A stretch of DNA of 59,746 nucleotides from Paracoccaceae bacterium (lineage in GTDB: Bacteria; Pseudomonadota; Alphaproteobacteria; Rhodobacterales; Rhodobacteraceae), in NCBI GenBank assembly GCA_020846995.1, contig JADLCV010000006.1:1-59746 (forward strand), in the 5' to 3' direction. The notes under the pieces were generated by a model. The model searched no databases. It was not told where the DNA came from and worked only from the letters and a program-made list of their open reading frames with translations. The position numbers and the translations under genes are program-made. How positions within the stretch are numbered: the first letter of the stretch is position 1; every line of letters begins with the position of its first letter. Below, in pieces: positions 50,226 to 59,597 of the stretch.

Positions 50226-51473
50226 ATGTTGAACCGCCGCGACATCCTTGTCGGAGCAACGGCACTCGCCGCCACGGCCGGGCTGCGACCGTCCTTCGCC
50301 CAGGCCGACGAGATCCGCATCGGCGCCATCTATCCCTTCTCGGGCTCGGGCGCGCAGATCGGCGTCGAGGCCAAGTATGCCATCGACACCGGCGAGCGCC
50401 TCGTCAACGAATCCTTCGACCTGAACCTCCTCCGGGCCCGCGATGCCGGGCTTCCGGCCCTTGGCGGCGCGAAGATCCGCATCATCTACGCCGACCACCA
50501 GGCCGACCCCCAGAAGGGCCGCGCCGAGGCCGAGCGGCTCATCACCCAGGAAGGCGTCGTCGGGCTGATCGGCACCTACTACAGTTCGGTCGCGGCCGTG
50601 GTGTCGCAGGTCGCCGAGCGCTACCAGGTGCCCTTCATCGCCGCCGAATCGTCCTCGCCCACGCTCCACCGCCAGGGGCTGAGGTATTTCTTCCGCGCCG
50701 GGCCGCACGACGAGCTCTACACCAACGCGATGTTCGAGTTCATGGACTCGCTCAAGGACTCGGGCCGGGCCCCGGTCGGCTCGATCGCGCTCTTCTACGA
50801 GGACACGCTCTTCGGCACCGAGACGGCACGGGTCCAGAAGGAACTCGCGGCGGCGCGCAGCATCCCCGTCGTCGCCGACGTCAAGTATCGCGCCAACTCG
50901 CCCTCGCTCGCCACCGAGGTCCAGATCCTCAAGTCGAGCAACCCCGACGTGGTGATGGCGACCTCCTACACGACCGACGCGATCCTCTTCATCAAGACCG
51001 CGAACGAGCTCGGCTTCCGTCCCAAGGGCGTCATCTGCCAGGATGCGGGCTACTACGAGCCGGCCTTCCTCGCCGCCGTCGGCCCGCTCGCCAACGGCCT
51101 CATCAGCCGGGCCACCTACGCCCCCGACTTCGCCGGCCGCCGGCCCGAGGTCCAGGTCGTCAACGATATCTTCAAGGCGATGTCGGGCAAGGACTTCAAC
51201 GACAGCACCTCGCGCGAGTTCACGGCCGTGCAGATCATGGCCGAGGCGATCAACCGGGCGGCCTCGCGCGAGGGGCCGGCGATCCGCGACGCGCTTGCCG
51301 CCCTCGACGTCCCGGGCGAGCTCACGATCATGCCGTGGGAGCGCATCAAGTTCGGCGAGGACGGCCAGAACAGCTTCGTCAAGCTGGTGATGATGCAGTG
51401 CAAGGACGGGGTCTACCGGACGGTCTGGCCGGGCCAGTATGCCTCGACCGAGCTCGTCTGGCCGATCAGCTGA
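50226..51473 (+). CDS. ABC-transporter solute-binding protein, first gene of the Liv-type operon
   Basis: This 415-residue protein has a leader with NRRDILVGA, a twin-arginine-like motif, ending AQA before DEIRIGA. Tat or Sec export are both possible. The type I periplasmic-binding fold shows IGTYYSSVAAVVSQVAE and AAESSSPTLHRQG. The set of contact residues around AESSSP differs from the other binding protein at 46.9-48.1 kb, so the two probably bind different ligands. GGGAGGAG lies 5 bases before the ATG. livH follows after 37 bases. Confidence 0.9.
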   Translation: MLNRRDILVGATALAATAGLRPSFAQADEIRIGAIYPFSGSGAQIGVEAKYAIDTGERLVNESFDLNLLRARDAGLPALGGAKIRIIYADHQADPQKGRAEAERLITQEGVVGLIGTYYSSVAAVVSQVAERYQVPFIAAESSSPTLHRQGLRYFFRAGPHDELYTNAMFEFMDSLKDSGRAPVGSIALFYEDTLFGTETARVQKELAAARSIPVVADVKYRANSPSLATEVQILKSSNPDVVMATSYTTDAILFIKTANELGFRPKGVICQDAGYYEPAFLAAVGPLANGLISRATYAPDFAGRRPEVQVVNDIFKAMSGKDFNDSTSREFTAVQIMAEAINRAASREGPAIRDALAALDVPGELTIMPWERIKFGEDGQNSFVKLVMMQCKDGVYRTVWPGQYASTELVWPIS

Positions 51474-51510
51474 TCACCATCGGCGCGCGCGAGACCCGGG
51501 AGACCCGTCC

Positions 51511-52389
51511 ATGACCGCCCAGATCGTCCTCCAGGTCCTCCTGAGCGGTCTCCTGATGGGCCTCATCTATGCCCTCGTGGCCTCGGGGCTCGCGCTCATC
51601 TTCGGGCTCATGGACGTCGTCAACTTCGCCCATGGCGACTTCCTGATGGTCGCCATGTACGCGCTGTTCGTCCTCGTCGCGATGTCGGGCGCCGACCCGC
51701 TCCTCCTCGCGCCCGTCGTCACGCTCGTGCTCTTCGCCTTCGGGGCGGCAATCTATCTCGGCATCGTCCGCTTCGCCATGCGGGTGCAGACCAACCGCGG
51801 CATGGTCCAGGTCTTCACGACCTTCGGGCTCGGCCTCCTCCTCCAGGGCCTTGCCCAGACCATCTTCACCCCCGACTACCGCAGCGTCGACGGCGGCATC
51901 GTCGCCGGCAAGTCGGTGGCGCTCGGGGGCATCATCCTGCCCATGCCCCATGTCGTCGGGGCGCTGATCTCGCTTGCCGCCTTTGGGCTGATCTGGCTTC
52001 TCATCAACCGCACCGACCTCGGCAAGGCGCTCGAGGCGACGCGCGAGGACGCCGACGCCGTCGCCCTCGTCGGCATCGACCGGAACCGGGTGTTCGCGAT
52101 CGGCTGGGGGCTCGGCTCGGCCCTCGTCGGGCTCTCGGCCTCGATCCTCGCGACCTTCTTCTACATCTTCCCGGGCGTCGGCAACAGCTTCGTCCTGATC
52201 GCCTTCGTCACCGTCGCCCTCGGCGGCTTCGGCAGCGTCTACGGGGCCCTGGCGGCGGGCGTGCTGATCGGCCTCATCGAGGCGATGACCGCGCTCCTCG
52301 TCGCGCCGTCGCTGAAGATGCTCGGGGTCTTCGCGGTCTACCTCGCGGTCGTCACCTTCCGGCCCCGCGGGCTTTTCGGGTCGATGTGA
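51511..52389 (+). CDS. livH: Branched-chain-type ABC transporter permease, LivH family
   Basis: This 292-residue inner-membrane protein has about eight helices. It has the family start LLSGLLMGLIYALVASGLALIFGLMDVVNFAHGDFLM and the EAA-like loop region TREDADAVALVGID contacting the ATPases. It forms the channel with LivM. Family members import leucine-type amino acids but also urea, amides and aromatic acids, so the name describes homology only. Confidence 0.92.
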   Translation: MTAQIVLQVLLSGLLMGLIYALVASGLALIFGLMDVVNFAHGDFLMVAMYALFVLVAMSGADPLLLAPVVTLVLFAFGAAIYLGIVRFAMRVQTNRGMVQVFTTFGLGLLLQGLAQTIFTPDYRSVDGGIVAGKSVALGGIILPMPHVVGALISLAAFGLIWLLINRTDLGKALEATREDADAVALVGIDRNRVFAIGWGLGSALVGLSASILATFFYIFPGVGNSFVLIAFVTVALGGFGSVYGALAAGVLIGLIEAMTALLVAPSLKMLGVFAVYLAVVTFRPRGLFGSM

Positions 52390-52423
52390 CGCCGCCGGCA
52401 AGCTGAAGGAACGGAGCCCCCAC

Positions 52424-53428
52424 GTGGCCCAGCCGCAGACCATCCCCGCCCCGATCACGGCCTTCACCTCGCGCCGGCGGCGCCAGCTTGCCGTCGCGCT
52501 CGCGGTCGCGCTCGCACTCGCACTCCTGCCGCTCGCGGTCGCCGACGTCTTCGTCATGAACATCCTCGTGCTGACAATCCTCTTCGCGTCGCTGTCGCAG
52601 AGCTGGAACATCCTCGGCGGCTATTGCGGGCAGATCTCGCTCGGCCATGCGGTCTATTTCGGCATCGGCGCCTATGTGACGGTGGCGCTCTTCGTCGACT
52701 TCGGCATCCTGCCGTGGTTCGGGATGCTGGCCGGGGCGGCGATCGCCGTCGTCCTCGCCCTCGCCCTCGGCTATCCCTGCTTCCGCCTCGCCGGGCACTA
52801 CTACACGATCGCCACCATCGTCATCGCCGAGGCGGCGCTGCTCCTTGTCGCCAACGCCGAGTGGACGGGCGGCGCCGTCGGGCTCCAGCTCCCGTTCGCG
52901 CCCGACAGCTGGGCGACGCTGCAGTTCGGCCGCACCAAGCTGCCCTACTACTACCTCGCGCTGGGCCTCGCCGTCGCAACCTGGATCGTCAGCTGGGTGA
53001 TCGAGGACACCCGCGCCGGCTACTGGTGGCGCGCCGTCAACAGCGACATCGCCGCGGCCCAGAGCCTCGGGGTCAACGTCTTCCGCTCGAAGATGGCGGC
53101 CTCGGCGGTCTCGGCCTTCTTCACGGCCGTCGCCGGCGGGGTCTATGCCTTCTTCGTCTCCTACATCGACCCCACGAGCGTGATGAGCTTCCACATCTCG
53201 CTCCTGATCTCGCTGCCCGCGGTCCTCGGCGGCATCGGCACGCTCTGGGGCCCGGCGCTCGGGGCGATCGTGCTCATCCCCATGGGCGAGCTCACCCGCA
53301 GCTACTTCGGCGGCACCGGGCTCGGCACCAACCTCATCGTCTACGGCGTCCTCGTCATGGCGATCTCGCTCCTGCGGCCGCAGGGGCTCGTCAGCCTCGT
53401 CCACCTCTTCGTGCCGCGGCGGGCGTGA
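52424..53428 (+). CDS. livM: Branched-chain-type ABC transporter permease, LivM family
   Basis: This second channel subunit has 334 residues and about nine helices. It has the family motif SWNILGGYCGQISLGHAVYFGIGAY and the loop WWRAVNSDIAAAQSLGVN. It starts at a GTG with GGAG upstream and ends in a TGATG junction with livG. About 18 residues of polar N-terminus precede the first helix. Confidence 0.92.
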   Translation: MAQPQTIPAPITAFTSRRRRQLAVALAVALALALLPLAVADVFVMNILVLTILFASLSQSWNILGGYCGQISLGHAVYFGIGAYVTVALFVDFGILPWFGMLAGAAIAVVLALALGYPCFRLAGHYYTIATIVIAEAALLLVANAEWTGGAVGLQLPFAPDSWATLQFGRTKLPYYYLALGLAVATWIVSWVIEDTRAGYWWRAVNSDIAAAQSLGVNVFRSKMAASAVSAFFTAVAGGVYAFFVSYIDPTSVMSFHISLLISLPAVLGGIGTLWGPALGAIVLIPMGELTRSYFGGTGLGTNLIVYGVLVMAISLLRPQGLVSLVHLFVPRRA

Positions 53429-54156
53429 TGGAGGGCCCCCCGCTCCTCGAGGTCGACGGCGTCACGCGCCGCTTCGGCAGCCTTGTCGCCAACGACGACG
53501 TCCGCTTCACCGTGCCGCGCGGCGGCCTGATCGGGCTCATCGGCCCCAACGGGGCGGGGAAGTCCACGCTCTTCAACCTCATCGCCGGTGTCTTTGCGCC
53601 CAGTGCCGGGCGCATTGTCTTCGACGGCACCGACATCACCCGGCTCCCGGCCCCCGCCCGCTGCGCCCTCGGCATCGCCCGCACCTTCCAGGTCGTGCGC
53701 AGCTTCAACGCCATGACCGTGCTCGACAACGTCCTCGTCGGGGCGCTCGTGCGCGATGCCGACACCCGGGCCGCGCGCTTCCGGGCCCACGAGATGCTCG
53801 TCTTCACCGGGCTCGACGGCCGCGCAAGGGCGCTCGCGGGCGAGCTCACCTCGCCCGAGAAGCGCCGCCTCGAGATGGCCCGGGCGCTGGCGACTAGGCC
53901 CAAGCTCCTCCTCCTCGACGAGGTCATGGCCGGCCTCACCCCGACCGAGGCGCGCGAGGGCATCGAGCTTGTGCGGCGGGTGCGCGCGAGCGGCATCACC
54001 GTCATCATGGTCGAGCATGTCATGGAGGTGGTGATGCCGCTTGTCGATCACGCCATCGTCCTCGACCTCGGCCGGGTGATCGCGAGCGGCCGGCCCGACG
54101 CCGTCGTGCGCGACCCCCGCGTCATCGAATCCTATCTCGGGGCCGGCCATGCTTGA
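53428..54156 (+). CDS. livG: Branched-chain-type ABC transporter ATPase, LivG family
   Basis: This 242-residue ATPase has Walker A GPNGAGKST (39-47), Walker B LLLLDE (160-165) and switch His197 in MVEHVME. The ABC signature is degenerate: ELTSPEKRR (139-147) instead of LSGGQ, and the Pro after the Walker B Glu is Val. Its partner LivF has a perfect signature, so one of the two composite ATP sites may be weakened. The start overlaps the livM stop by one base. Confidence 0.92.
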   Translation: MEGPPLLEVDGVTRRFGSLVANDDVRFTVPRGGLIGLIGPNGAGKSTLFNLIAGVFAPSAGRIVFDGTDITRLPAPARCALGIARTFQVVRSFNAMTVLDNVLVGALVRDADTRAARFRAHEMLVFTGLDGRARALAGELTSPEKRRLEMARALATRPKLLLLDEVMAGLTPTEAREGIELVRRVRASGITVIMVEHVMEVVMPLVDHAIVLDLGRVIASGRPDAVVRDPRVIESYLGAGHA

Positions 54157-54853
54157 GGTCCGCCATCTCGCCGCCGGCTACCACGGCCTCGTCGCCCTCG
54201 CCGATGTCTCCTTCGGCGTCGCGGCGGGCGAGATCCTCGTCGTCGCCGGCGCCAACGGGGCGGGCAAGTCGACCGTCCTCAAGACCGTCGCCGGGGTGGT
54301 CCCCGCGCGGAGCGGCACCATCACCTTCGACGGGGCGCGCATCGACCATCTGGCGGCGCACCGGATCACCCGGCTGGGGATGGCCTTCGTGCCCGAGGAG
54401 CGGCGCCTCTTCCCGCGCATGACGGTGCGCGACAACCTCCGCCTCGGCAGCTACCTGCACCGCCGGCGCGCCGACCGCGAGGCCCCGCTCGCCACCGTCC
54501 TGCGCCTCTTTCCGCGGCTCGAGGAGCGGATGGACCAGCTTGCCGCGACGCTCTCGGGGGGCGAGCAGCAGATGCTCGCGATCGGGCGGGCGCTGATGAC
54601 TCGGCCGCGGCTCCTCATGCTCGACGAGCCCTCGCAGGGGATCATGCCGCGGCTCGTCGCCGAGATCTTCCGCGCCATCGAGGAGGTGCGCCGGGCCGGC
54701 ATCACCATCCTGCTCGTCGAGCAGCGGCTGACCGAAAGCCTGGCCATCGCCGACAAGGCCATCATCCTGCGGACCGGCCGCATCGTCGTCGCCGGCACGG
54801 CCGCCGAGGTCCGGGCCAACCCCGAGGTCCGCAGCGCCTACCTTGGCATGTAG
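54149..54853 (+). CDS. livF: Branched-chain-type ABC transporter ATPase, LivF family
   Basis: This 234-residue ATPase has Walker A GANGAGKST (34-42), signature LSGGEQQ (135-141), Walker B LLMLDEP and the LivF-typical VEQ at the switch position. It overlaps livG by 8 bases. It completes the set SBP-LivH-LivM-LivG-LivF. Confidence 0.94.
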   Translation: MLEVRHLAAGYHGLVALADVSFGVAAGEILVVAGANGAGKSTVLKTVAGVVPARSGTITFDGARIDHLAAHRITRLGMAFVPEERRLFPRMTVRDNLRLGSYLHRRRADREAPLATVLRLFPRLEERMDQLAATLSGGEQQMLAIGRALMTRPRLLMLDEPSQGIMPRLVAEIFRAIEEVRRAGITILLVEQRLTESLAIADKAIILRTGRIVVAGTAAEVRANPEVRSAYLGM

Positions 54854-57227: not shown

Positions 57228-57253
57228 AGGCCCGGGCCGCGGGGCCCGGGCCT
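57228..57253 (-). terminator. Intrinsic-type terminator of the Cys-tail protein gene
   Basis: An 11-base-pair perfect stem AGGCCCGGGCC / GGCCCGGGCCT around a 4-base loop lies 23 bases past the stop on the minus strand. It is followed by TTGTCGTTGTC. Confidence 0.65.
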
Positions 57254-57276: not shown

Positions 57277-57696
57277 TCAGTAGCAGAGCCAGGCGTATTC
57301 GCACCAGCCGTTCCAGTAGCACTGCCAGGCCCAGACGCAGCCGCCGCGATACTGGGCCTCGGCGGCGGGGCGGATCTCGTCGATCATGGCCAGAAGGTTC
57401 GCGTCGTCGCCGGCCATCCCGGCGGCTTCGTCGAGGACGGCGCCGAGGTCGATCGGCTGGCCGTCGGCGCCGAGGATCTGGGTCTGGACCGTGGTCATCA
57501 TCCGAACCGCGGCGATGATGGCGAGCGCATCGCCCTTGGCGCGACCGTAGGCGAGAAGGTCTTGCGCCGTCTCGAGCGTGATCCGCTGCTCGGTCTGCTC
57601 GGTCGAGAGCGCGGCCTGCGCAGCCTGGGCCGAGGCGACGGGGGCGACGGAGAGGCTGCCGAAGACAAGCGCGACGGCGAGGACGAGACGTTTCAT
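57277..57696 (-). CDS. Small secreted protein with C-terminal Cys/aromatic hexad repeat, unknown function
   Basis: This 139-residue protein has a signal peptide (1-23, ending VASA). A helical middle (about 33-112) has a Y-G-R-x-K-G-D-A motif. The tail is remarkable: cysteines at 120, 126, 132 and 138 give three hexads and a remnant, CVWAWQ / CYWNGW / CEYAWL / CY, with an aromatic at position 3 of each full hexad. AGGAG precedes the ATG, a promoter and a terminator flank it, so it is a self-contained gene. The even cysteines and export suggest disulfides or metal binding, which is inference. Confidence 0.8.
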   Translation of the reverse strand: MKRLVLAVALVFGSLSVAPVASAQAAQAALSTEQTEQRITLETAQDLLAYGRAKGDALAIIAAVRMMTTVQTQILGADGQPIDLGAVLDEAAGMAGDDANLLAMIDEIRPAAEAQYRGGCVWAWQCYWNGWCEYAWLCY

Positions 57697-57786
57697 CGAA
57701 AGCTCCTGTCAGGGTGCAAGCGTGGCTGCGGCGCGGGCCCAAGGTGGGGAGGGGGGAGGAAGCGCCCGACCTCGCAGCGCGGGCTG

Positions 57787-57887: not shown

Positions 57888-59597
57888 TCAGCGGCGGCCG
57901 GCGAAGCGGACCTGCCAGTCGGCGCGCTCCTCGTCGGTGATCTTGCGGAAGAGGACGTCGGGGGTCGCGAAGGGGTGGCCGGGAGGAAGACGGGTGAGCG
58001 CGGCGCCGAGGTCGTCGGGCCAGGCCCAGTCCTCGCAGCCGAGCGCACCCATCATCGCCGCGGCCGCGTCGGGAATGAAGGGCCGTGCGAGGATCGCGTA
58101 AAGCCGGATCAGGTTCAGCGCCAGGCGGACCGCCGCCGCCGCCGCCGCGGGATCGGTCCGGACCACCGTCCAGGGGGCGGCCGCCTGGAGGTATTCGTTG
58201 CCTGCGACCCAGATCGCCCGCAGTTCGGCCGCGGCCTTGCGGATCTCGATCGCGTCCATGTGGCCCTCGAAGGCGTCAAGCCGCTGCCCGAGGTCGGCCG
58301 CCAGCGTCGCCTCGCGCGGGCCCCACGTGCCCCCTTCGGGCACGCTCTCGCCGAACTTGGCGCGGCAGAACTTCGTCACCCGGCTGACGAGGTTGCCGAG
58401 GACGTCGGCGAGGTCCTTGTTGACGGCGGCCTGGAAGTTCTCCCAGGTGAACTCGGCATCGGCGTTCTCGGGGGCGTGCGAGAGGAGCCACCAGCGCCAG
58501 TAGTCGGCGGGCAGGATCGCCAGGGCCTGGTCCATGAACACCCCGCGGCCCCGCGAGGTCGAGAACTGCCCGCCGTCGTAGTTGAGGTAGTTGAACGACT
58601 TGATGTAGTCGACAAGCTTCCAGGGCTCGCCCGAGCCGAGGATCGTGGCGGGGAACGAGAGGGTATGGAAGGGGACGTTGTCCTTGCCCATGAACTGGAT
58701 GTAGGTGACGTCGCCGGCGCCGCGGTCGGTGCGCCACCAGCGCTCCCAGTCGCGGCCCTTGCCGGCCGCCACCCATTCCTGGGCGCAGGCGATGTATTCG
58801 ATCGGGGCATCGAACCAGACGTAGAAGACCTTGCCCTCCATCCCCGTCCACGGCGCCCCGGGGAACTGGACCGGCACCCCCCAGGCGAGGTCGCGGGTGA
58901 TGCCGCGGTCCTGGAGGCCGTCGCCGTCGTTCAGCCACTTCCTCGCGATCGAGGTGGTGAGGATCGGCCAGCCGGTCTTGCCGTCGATCCAGGCCGCGAG
59001 GCGGTCGCGCATCGCCGACTGGCGCAGGGAGAGGTGGCGGGTGGCCCGGAGCTCGAGGTCGGTCGCGCCCGAGATCGCCGAACGGGGGTTGATGAGCTCG
59101 CCCGGGTCGAGCTGCTTGGTGCAGTTGTCGCACTGGTCGCCGCGGGCGTCGGTGAAGCCGCAGTTGGGGCAGGTGCCCTCGATGTAGCGGTCGGGCAGGA
59201 AGCGGCCGTCGGCGACCGAATACATCTGCCGCTCGGTCACCTCGCTGATGAGCCCGGCGGCGGCGAGGCGAAGGGCGAAGTGCTGGGTCAGGCGGTGGTT
59301 CTCGGGGCTCGACGAGCGGCCGAAATGGTCGAAGGAGAGGCGGAAGCCCTGCGACAGGCGGGCCTGGACGGCGTGCATCTCGGCGCAGTATTCGGCCACC
59401 GGCCGGCCGGCCCGGGCGGCGGCGAGTTCGGCCGGCGTCCCGTGTTCGTCGGTGGCGCAGAGGAAGAGGACCTCATGCCCGCGCCCGCGCAGGTAGCGGG
59501 CATGGAGGTCGGCCGGCAGCTGGCTGCCGATCAGGTTGCCGAGATGCTTGATGCCGTTGATGTAGGGGATGGCGGAGGTGATCAGGTAGCGGGCCAC
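57888..59597 (-). CDS. metG: Methionyl-tRNA synthetase
   Basis: This 569-residue class I synthetase charges tRNA-Met. It has the HIGH-equivalent HLGN at 18-21 in [11 protein letters not shown], and zinc ligands C143-x2-C146 and C156-x2-C159. The KMSKS-equivalent is QFSTS near 345 ([11 protein letters not shown]), which lacks both lysines; I recall the same form in other Rhodobacterales, so it is a lineage trait. It ends after the anticodon-binding helical domain, without a C-terminal dimerisation/tRNA-binding module. A possible -10 (TAGAGG) lies about 36 bases upstream. Confidence 0.96.

What the first reader, a model, noticed from the sequence alone, without database searches (positions are those of the whole stretch)
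57277..57696. Secreted small protein with a C-x5-C-x5-C-x5-C aromatic hexad tail
Seen: after a signal peptide and a short helical body, the last 20 residues carry four cysteines exactly six apart (120, 126, 132, 138), with Trp/Tyr between them. Such regular spacing is not explained by any family I know. The gene has its own promoter-like sequence, a good ribosome site and a strong terminator. Inference: the tail could bind metal or haem, form a disulfide ladder, or anchor to envelope material. It may be a new ribosomally made structural or redox motif.
Basis: partly seen in the sequence, partly recalled or inferred. Interest (0 to 1): 0.65.

Follow-up and report, generated by a model that had tools for sequence, protein, structure and literature searches.

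The report
Caspase-associated secreted protein with cysteine hairpin
This is a small secreted bacterial protein whose odd, evenly spaced cysteine tail is predicted to fold as a hairpin clipped by two disulfide bonds, and its unnamed family is repeatedly encoded right next to secreted caspase-like proteases, which suggests it works with them.

Summary
A 139-aa ORF on the minus strand (57277-57696) has a signal peptide, a helical body and a tail CVWAWQCYWNGWCEYAWLCY with Cys at 120/126/132/138. Homologues in Mesorhizobium plasmids and in one other alphaproteobacterial lineage keep four Cys and end in Cys-Tyr, although the bodies are only 24-44% identical. The spacing is not a strict hexad: one homologue has 5-7-5, and three have a single Cys pair. 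AlphaFold, run on the whole protein and on the isolated tail (pLDDT about 91), gives a beta-hairpin with strands exactly C120-C126 and C132-C138. This implies C120-C138 and C126-C132 disulfides around stacked aromatics; haem or metal binding is not supported. The body belongs to an unnamed family (no Pfam, NCBIfam, PADLOC or PDB match) that usually carries a larger beta-rich C-terminal domain instead. 22 of 49 family genes lie directly beside a secreted caspase (Peptidase_C14) gene, others beside CHAT or trypsin-like protease genes; two tail-bearing members and one with a caspase remnant are among these. The window copy itself is not next to a protease gene. Best reading: a partner or substrate of secreted caspase-type proteases, whose hairpin may be released after a basic residue. 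The function is inferred.

The parts
57277..57696 (-). CDS of the secreted 139-aa protein (stop codon 57277-57279)
   Evidence: dN/dS 0.195 against congener
57628..57696 (-). Sec-type signal peptide, residues 1-23 (MKRLVLAVALVFGSLSVAPVASA|Q), cleavage by inspection
   Evidence: sequence; residues 1-27 disordered in the model
57346..57603 (-). alpha-helical body, residues 32-117 (helices 32-54, 57-68, 84-95, 99-117)
   Evidence: AlphaFold model; profile homologous to bodies of caspase-linked proteins, hhalign probability 99.2, E 3.5e-19
57343..57348 (-). R117-G118 junction between body and tail; basic residue conserved here across the family (candidate protease site or helix cap)
   Evidence: 48 of 49 members have K/R in this stretch, 37 of 49 K/R-G
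57319..57339 (-). beta-strand 1 of the tail, C120-C126 (CVWAWQC)
57304..57318 (-). turn of the hairpin, YWNGW (residues 127-131)
57283..57303 (-). beta-strand 2 of the tail, C132-C138 (CEYAWLC), followed by terminal Tyr139
57703..57707 (-). ribosome-binding site AGGAG
   Evidence: sequence
57229..57252 (-). GC-rich hairpin after the stop, terminator-like but without a T run
   Evidence: sequence; hairpin also present in L008; consensus scan negative
57888..59597 (-). neighbouring methionyl-tRNA synthetase gene (metG) upstream on the same strand; order kept in the congener
   Evidence: identified by inspection of the sequence

Best explanation
A Sec-exported protein in two parts. The four-helix body is the shared domain of an undescribed family of exported partners of caspase-like (Peptidase_C14) and CHAT proteases. 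The C-terminal 20 residues form an aromatic beta-hairpin closed by two disulfides, C120-C138 and C126-C132, made in the oxidising periplasm, with W122-W136 and W124-Y134 stacked between the two rungs. In most relatives the same place is taken by a beta-rich domain of about 90 residues. Most likely mechanism: the body docks to a secreted caspase-type protease, while the C-terminal beta module is the recognition or cargo element, probably freed by cleavage after the basic residue at the junction (R117-G118 here). Shown: the ORF, the conservation of the tail, the body homology, the gene linkage of the family to proteases. Predicted: the hairpin and its disulfides. Inferred: docking, cleavage, release, and that the window copy acts in trans on proteases encoded elsewhere in its genome.
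For: Tail with four Cys conserved in distant homologues: Mesorhizobium CYWQYYCYWNGYCEYAYYCY and G040 CYYQYYCNAWGYCWYQYYCY, bodies 24-44% identical. Equal outer spacings (5 and 5) are kept while the middle varies (5 or 7), as a hairpin with two rungs demands. AlphaFold hairpin with strands exactly Cys-to-Cys in the whole protein and in the isolated tail, pLDDT about 91. Body homology between tail-bearing and domain-bearing members, no sequences shared. 22 of 49 family ORFs directly beside a caspase gene, often overlapping by about 4 nt; caspase identity by Pfam and His-Cys dyad mostly intact. CHAT and trypsin-like neighbours. Co-occurrence: caspase in 21 of 22 family-positive against 118 of 274 family-negative genomes, Fisher P 1.1e-6. 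Tail-bearing members next to a caspase: Mesorhizobium AR07 and G040:C15, plus a remnant in INR15. Conserved K/R at the junction fits proteases that cut after basic residues (orthocaspases: PMC6426788).
Against: The window copy and four other tail-bearing loci have no caspase gene within about 6 kb where that much sequence was held, so the link for this copy rests on relatives. The basic-Gly junction sits at the end of the last helix and may just be a helix cap. No disulfide, cleavage or expression data exist. The structure rests on a two-sequence alignment and a single sequence. G040:C7 has no K/R immediately before the tail. One caspase next to the family (G205) did not show the Cys motif sought.
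Confidence: 0.42

Rival explanations
1. Binding or anchoring protein without proteolysis: the aromatic disulfide hairpin binds envelope material (peptidoglycan, outer-membrane protein, polysaccharide) or another protein and the helical body is a scaffold. The protease linkage reflects a shared envelope stress or quality-control setting.
For: Many tail-bearing copies stand alone; the surface is rich in Trp/Tyr, which often bind sugars or lipids; the body resembles common helical-hairpin scaffolds.
Against: 22 of 49 family genes are directly beside caspase genes, tighter than a shared stress setting would need; the conserved basic junction is not explained except as a helix cap.
Confidence: 0.27
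2. Precursor of a beta-hairpin peptide (bacteriocin or signal) released by a protease, as arenicin-type peptides are released from BRICHOS precursors.
For: Signal peptide, helical pro-part, basic site and a C-terminal hairpin with a two-rung Cys pattern, with a protease gene next door in two lineages. Capitellacin has the same overall order: signal, BRICHOS, Lys-Arg site, 20-residue hairpin (PMC7761999).
Against: Net charge -1 against cationic known hairpin antimicrobials (PMC13001179); no immunity or exporter gene was recognised nearby; paralogues carry a beta domain at the same place; the metG neighbourhood is kept in the congener, unlike a mobile bacteriocin.
Confidence: 0.13
3. Metal, haem or redox protein using the four regularly spaced Cys.
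For: Four Cys and many aromatics in 20 residues.
Against: No CxxC, CxxCH or His in the tail; single-pair relatives exist; the predicted fold pairs the Cys with each other.
Confidence: 0.06
4. Intermolecular disulfide cross-linker: tails of several molecules join into a covalent assembly.
For: Even Cys spacing places all four on one face of the strands, so cross-linking is possible.
Against: The isolated tail is predicted to fold on itself with high confidence; short forms have only one pair.
Confidence: 0.07

Closest known systems
Beta-hairpin antimicrobial peptides (tachyplesin, protegrin, arenicin/capitellacin precursors)
   Same: About 20-residue C-terminal hairpin closed by two mirror-paired disulfides, after a signal peptide and a pro-domain with a basic cleavage site (PMC7761999, PMC13001179)
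   Different: Bacterial; slightly anionic, not cationic; 5-5-5 Cys spacing; helical body instead of BRICHOS or cathelin; most family members carry a beta domain there instead
Tryptophan zipper (trpzip) designed hairpins
   Same: Cross-strand Trp/Tyr pairs and an Asn-Gly turn (resemblance from memory and from the predicted pairing)
   Different: Natural, with a disulfide rung at each end, attached to a secreted protein
Secreted orthocaspase/metacaspase (Peptidase_C14) loci of Alphaproteobacteria
   Same: Relatives of this protein are adjacent to such genes
   Different: This protein is not a protease; no description of such a partner was found in the searched library
EACC1-associated caspase (NF047832)
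   Same: The Mesorhizobium caspase beside the hairpin gene matches it weakly (26 bits)
   Different: Far below its cut-off of 140 bits, so not a member

Membership tests
Beta-hairpin antimicrobial peptide precursor | Hairpin with two cross-strand disulfides at the C-terminus | tested here: inconclusive
   Predicted strands C120-C126 / C132-C138; disulfides not measured
Beta-hairpin antimicrobial peptide precursor | Cationic mature peptide | tested here: not met
   Tail net charge -1
Beta-hairpin antimicrobial peptide precursor | Antimicrobial activity | not testable with these tools
   needs a bench assay
Multihaem or cytochrome c type protein | CxxCH haem motif | tested here: not met
   No CxxC and no His in the tail
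Unnamed caspase-associated helical body family (defined here) | Homologous helical body | tested here: met
   A1 profile hits in 22 of 296 genomes; hhalign E 3.5e-19
Unnamed caspase-associated helical body family (defined here) | Gene directly beside a caspase or CHAT gene | tested here: not met
   Not for the window copy; met for 22 of 49 relatives. A tendency of the family, not required for membership
Known Pfam, NCBIfam, PADLOC or PDB family | Profile or sequence match | tested here: not met
   Only weak sub-threshold matches, or none
PPC (pre-peptidase C-terminal) domain in the tail-less relatives | Pfam PPC match | tested here: not met
   Two such proteins gave no Pfam family; likeness is by eye only
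TPR or LpoP-like helical fold for the body | Significant structural match | tested here: inconclusive
   Best Foldseek E 1.1 (LpoP); VIA Z up to 9.2 to designed helical bundles, under the level trusted for helical models

The most novel reading that the evidence does not exclude
Secreted bacterial caspase-type proteases have a dedicated exported partner that releases, after cleavage at a basic junction, either a beta domain or a doubly disulfide-stapled aromatic hairpin peptide, which acts as signal or effector: a bacterial caspase pathway with a peptide output.
Probability: 0.13. Interest if true: 0.85.

Novelty: new variant of a known kind. Interest (0 to 1): 0.52.

Why it matters
The roles and natural substrates of bacterial caspase homologues are largely open. 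An exported, undescribed family that travels with secreted caspase, CHAT and trypsin-like proteases, and carries a conserved basic junction before a swappable C-terminal module, gives a concrete candidate substrate or partner to test. A natural genetically encoded Trp/Tyr hairpin with two disulfide rungs would also be an unusual, very stable mini-fold for bacteria.

Tried and rejected
Haem or metal site: no motif. Strict hexad repeat: rejected, spacing 5-7-5 and single-pair forms exist. Chance: rejected. Known family: Pfam, NCBIfam, PADLOC and PDB gave nothing usable. Viral origin: no relative in viral contigs; the tail had no credible match in phages. Body fold: no significant match; Foldseek of the isolated tail found nothing. 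Four-Cys pattern scans of 385 class and 292 order genomes added no credible tail beyond the window and G040; other matches were chance, some with stops inside. Family scans around guessed relatives of Mesorhizobium added one tail-less member. Palindrome argument: the two strands look alike both mirrored and directly, so sequence alone does not prove a hairpin.

Full report
Observation. The ORF 57277-57696 is on the minus strand and encodes MKRLVLAVALVFGSLSVAPVASAQ...AQYRGGCVWAWQCYWNGWCEYAWLCY. The four cysteines are the only ones in the protein and lie exactly six apart. Shuffled versions of the protein reach this with P about 1.5e-5. Against the congener copy (L008, Rhodobacteraceae bacterium isolate PRO13) dN/dS is 0.195 overall and 0.14 in the body; the tail has one silent change and one V/I change. 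The ribosome site AGGAG is present. No sigma-70 promoter or T-run terminator was found by consensus, although a strong hairpin follows the stop codon in both congeners.

Relatives with the tail. A protein search of 61 genomes found the congener, a shorter homologue in G028 (ending CARNGFCY) and a distant one in G040, of another family of the class, ending CYYQYYCNAWGYCWYQYYCY. A plasmid search found two Mesorhizobium copies ending CYWQYYCYWNGYCEYAYYCY. G040 has a second copy ending CSYQDYCTQDAPPYCWQEYYCY, where the middle gap is seven. G708 ends CGPLWCY and G431 ends CYGPYGVGWC. All but G431 end in Cys-Tyr. The outer spacings in four-Cys members are always 5 and 5; the middle is 5 or 7. No match exists in Pfam, NCBIfam, PADLOC or PDB sequence.

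Structure. AlphaFold on the window protein plus the congener gives four helices (32-117) followed by strands 120-126 and 132-138 (mean pLDDT 76). The last 30 residues alone, as a single sequence, give the same two strands with pLDDT about 91. In that hairpin register C120 faces C138 and C126 faces C132, W122 faces W136 and W124 faces Y134, with YWNGW as the turn. Disulfides are inferred from geometry and export, not modelled or measured. This explains why outer spacings are equal and the middle one may vary. The strands are also similar when read directly, so the sequence alone would not decide. The body has no significant fold match.

The wider family. A profile of the tail-bearing proteins found 22 of 296 genomes of the window's own family positive, mostly with a different C-terminus: a beta-rich domain ending in ..YxLxTN. 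It resembles pre-peptidase C-terminal domains by eye, but Pfam gave no match. Bodies of tail-bearing and domain-bearing members, aligned as separate sets, match with hhalign probability 99.2 and E 3.5e-19.

Protease linkage. Among 49 family ORFs, 22 lie directly beside a caspase gene on the same strand, usually just upstream and often overlapping by about 4 nt; one of these (G000:C191) was itself found through its caspase, so the unbiased count is 21 of 48, and some loci hold more than one member. The caspases are Pfam Peptidase_C14 with signal peptides and mostly intact His and Cys motifs. CHAT proteins flank members in G099, G205 and G727, and a trypsin-like protease one in G680. Caspase genes occur in 21 of 22 family-positive against 118 of 274 family-negative genomes (Fisher P 1.1e-6). 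Tail-bearing examples: Mesorhizobium AR07 (caspase directly upstream), G040:C15 (caspase start immediately after the tail gene), and Mesorhizobium INR15, where only remnants of the caspase gene are left upstream. For a random gene the chance of such a neighbour is about 0.15-0.5 percent (an estimate from gene counts), so two of seven tail lineages is already unlikely (P 5e-5 to 5e-4).

The window copy stands beside metG, as in the congener, without a caspase gene. Its genome carries three Peptidase_C14 genes elsewhere, one of them paired with a body-family protein (L044) and one followed by a trypsin-like protease (L043). Acting in trans is inference.

Junction. A Lys or Arg occurs at the body-tail boundary in 48 of 49 members and is followed by Gly in 37. 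Orthocaspases are reported to cut after basic residues (PMC6426788), and trypsin-like proteases do so too (general knowledge). This suggests cleavage, but the position is also the end of the last helix, where Gly is common.

Comparison. The nearest architecture is that of animal hairpin peptides such as capitellacin: signal peptide, pro-domain, basic site, 20-residue hairpin (PMC7761999). The tail here is not cationic, so membership fails; a similar way of working remains possible. Library searches found no description of such a caspase partner, but subscription papers are mostly not held.

Verdict. Real, conserved and undescribed; the mechanism is open. Hairpin with two disulfides: about 0.75. 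Family tied to secreted caspase-type proteases: about 0.9. This copy acting as a partner or substrate of such a protease: about 0.4.

Noticed in passing
L044:4240-7022 (G000:C191): In the window's own genome a body-family gene with a beta-rich C-terminus lies 12 nt upstream of a secreted caspase gene, with an HtrA-like serine protease gene on the opposite strand.
   Followed up: partly
L043:479-3703 (G000:C162): A secreted caspase gene followed directly by a secreted trypsin-like protease gene; the same kind of pair occurs near body-family genes in G680, G727 and G028.
   Followed up: partly
L049:2614-12000 (G205): A cluster of three body-family genes, a caspase gene in which the Cys motif was not found, and a TPR-CHAT gene.
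   Followed up: partly
L045:5973-7196 (G000:C81) and L052 (G001): A body-family gene with beta-rich C-terminus directly follows a MerR-type regulator gene (CueR-like by eye) in both congeners.
   Followed up: no
L050:5846-7113 and L085:5237-6411: The two single-pair Cys-tail genes (G028, G708) both sit next to a gene for an NYN/LabA-like protein (by eye), which suggests an inherited locus.
   Followed up: no
L028:3789-4723: Mesorhizobium INR15 plasmid keeps the hairpin gene while the adjacent caspase gene is broken into remnants.
   Followed up: partly
window 51439-54853: A branched-chain amino acid ABC transporter operon, followed by an S-formylglutathione hydrolase gene (by eye); the latter also lies within 4 kb of the tail gene in G708.
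   Followed up: no
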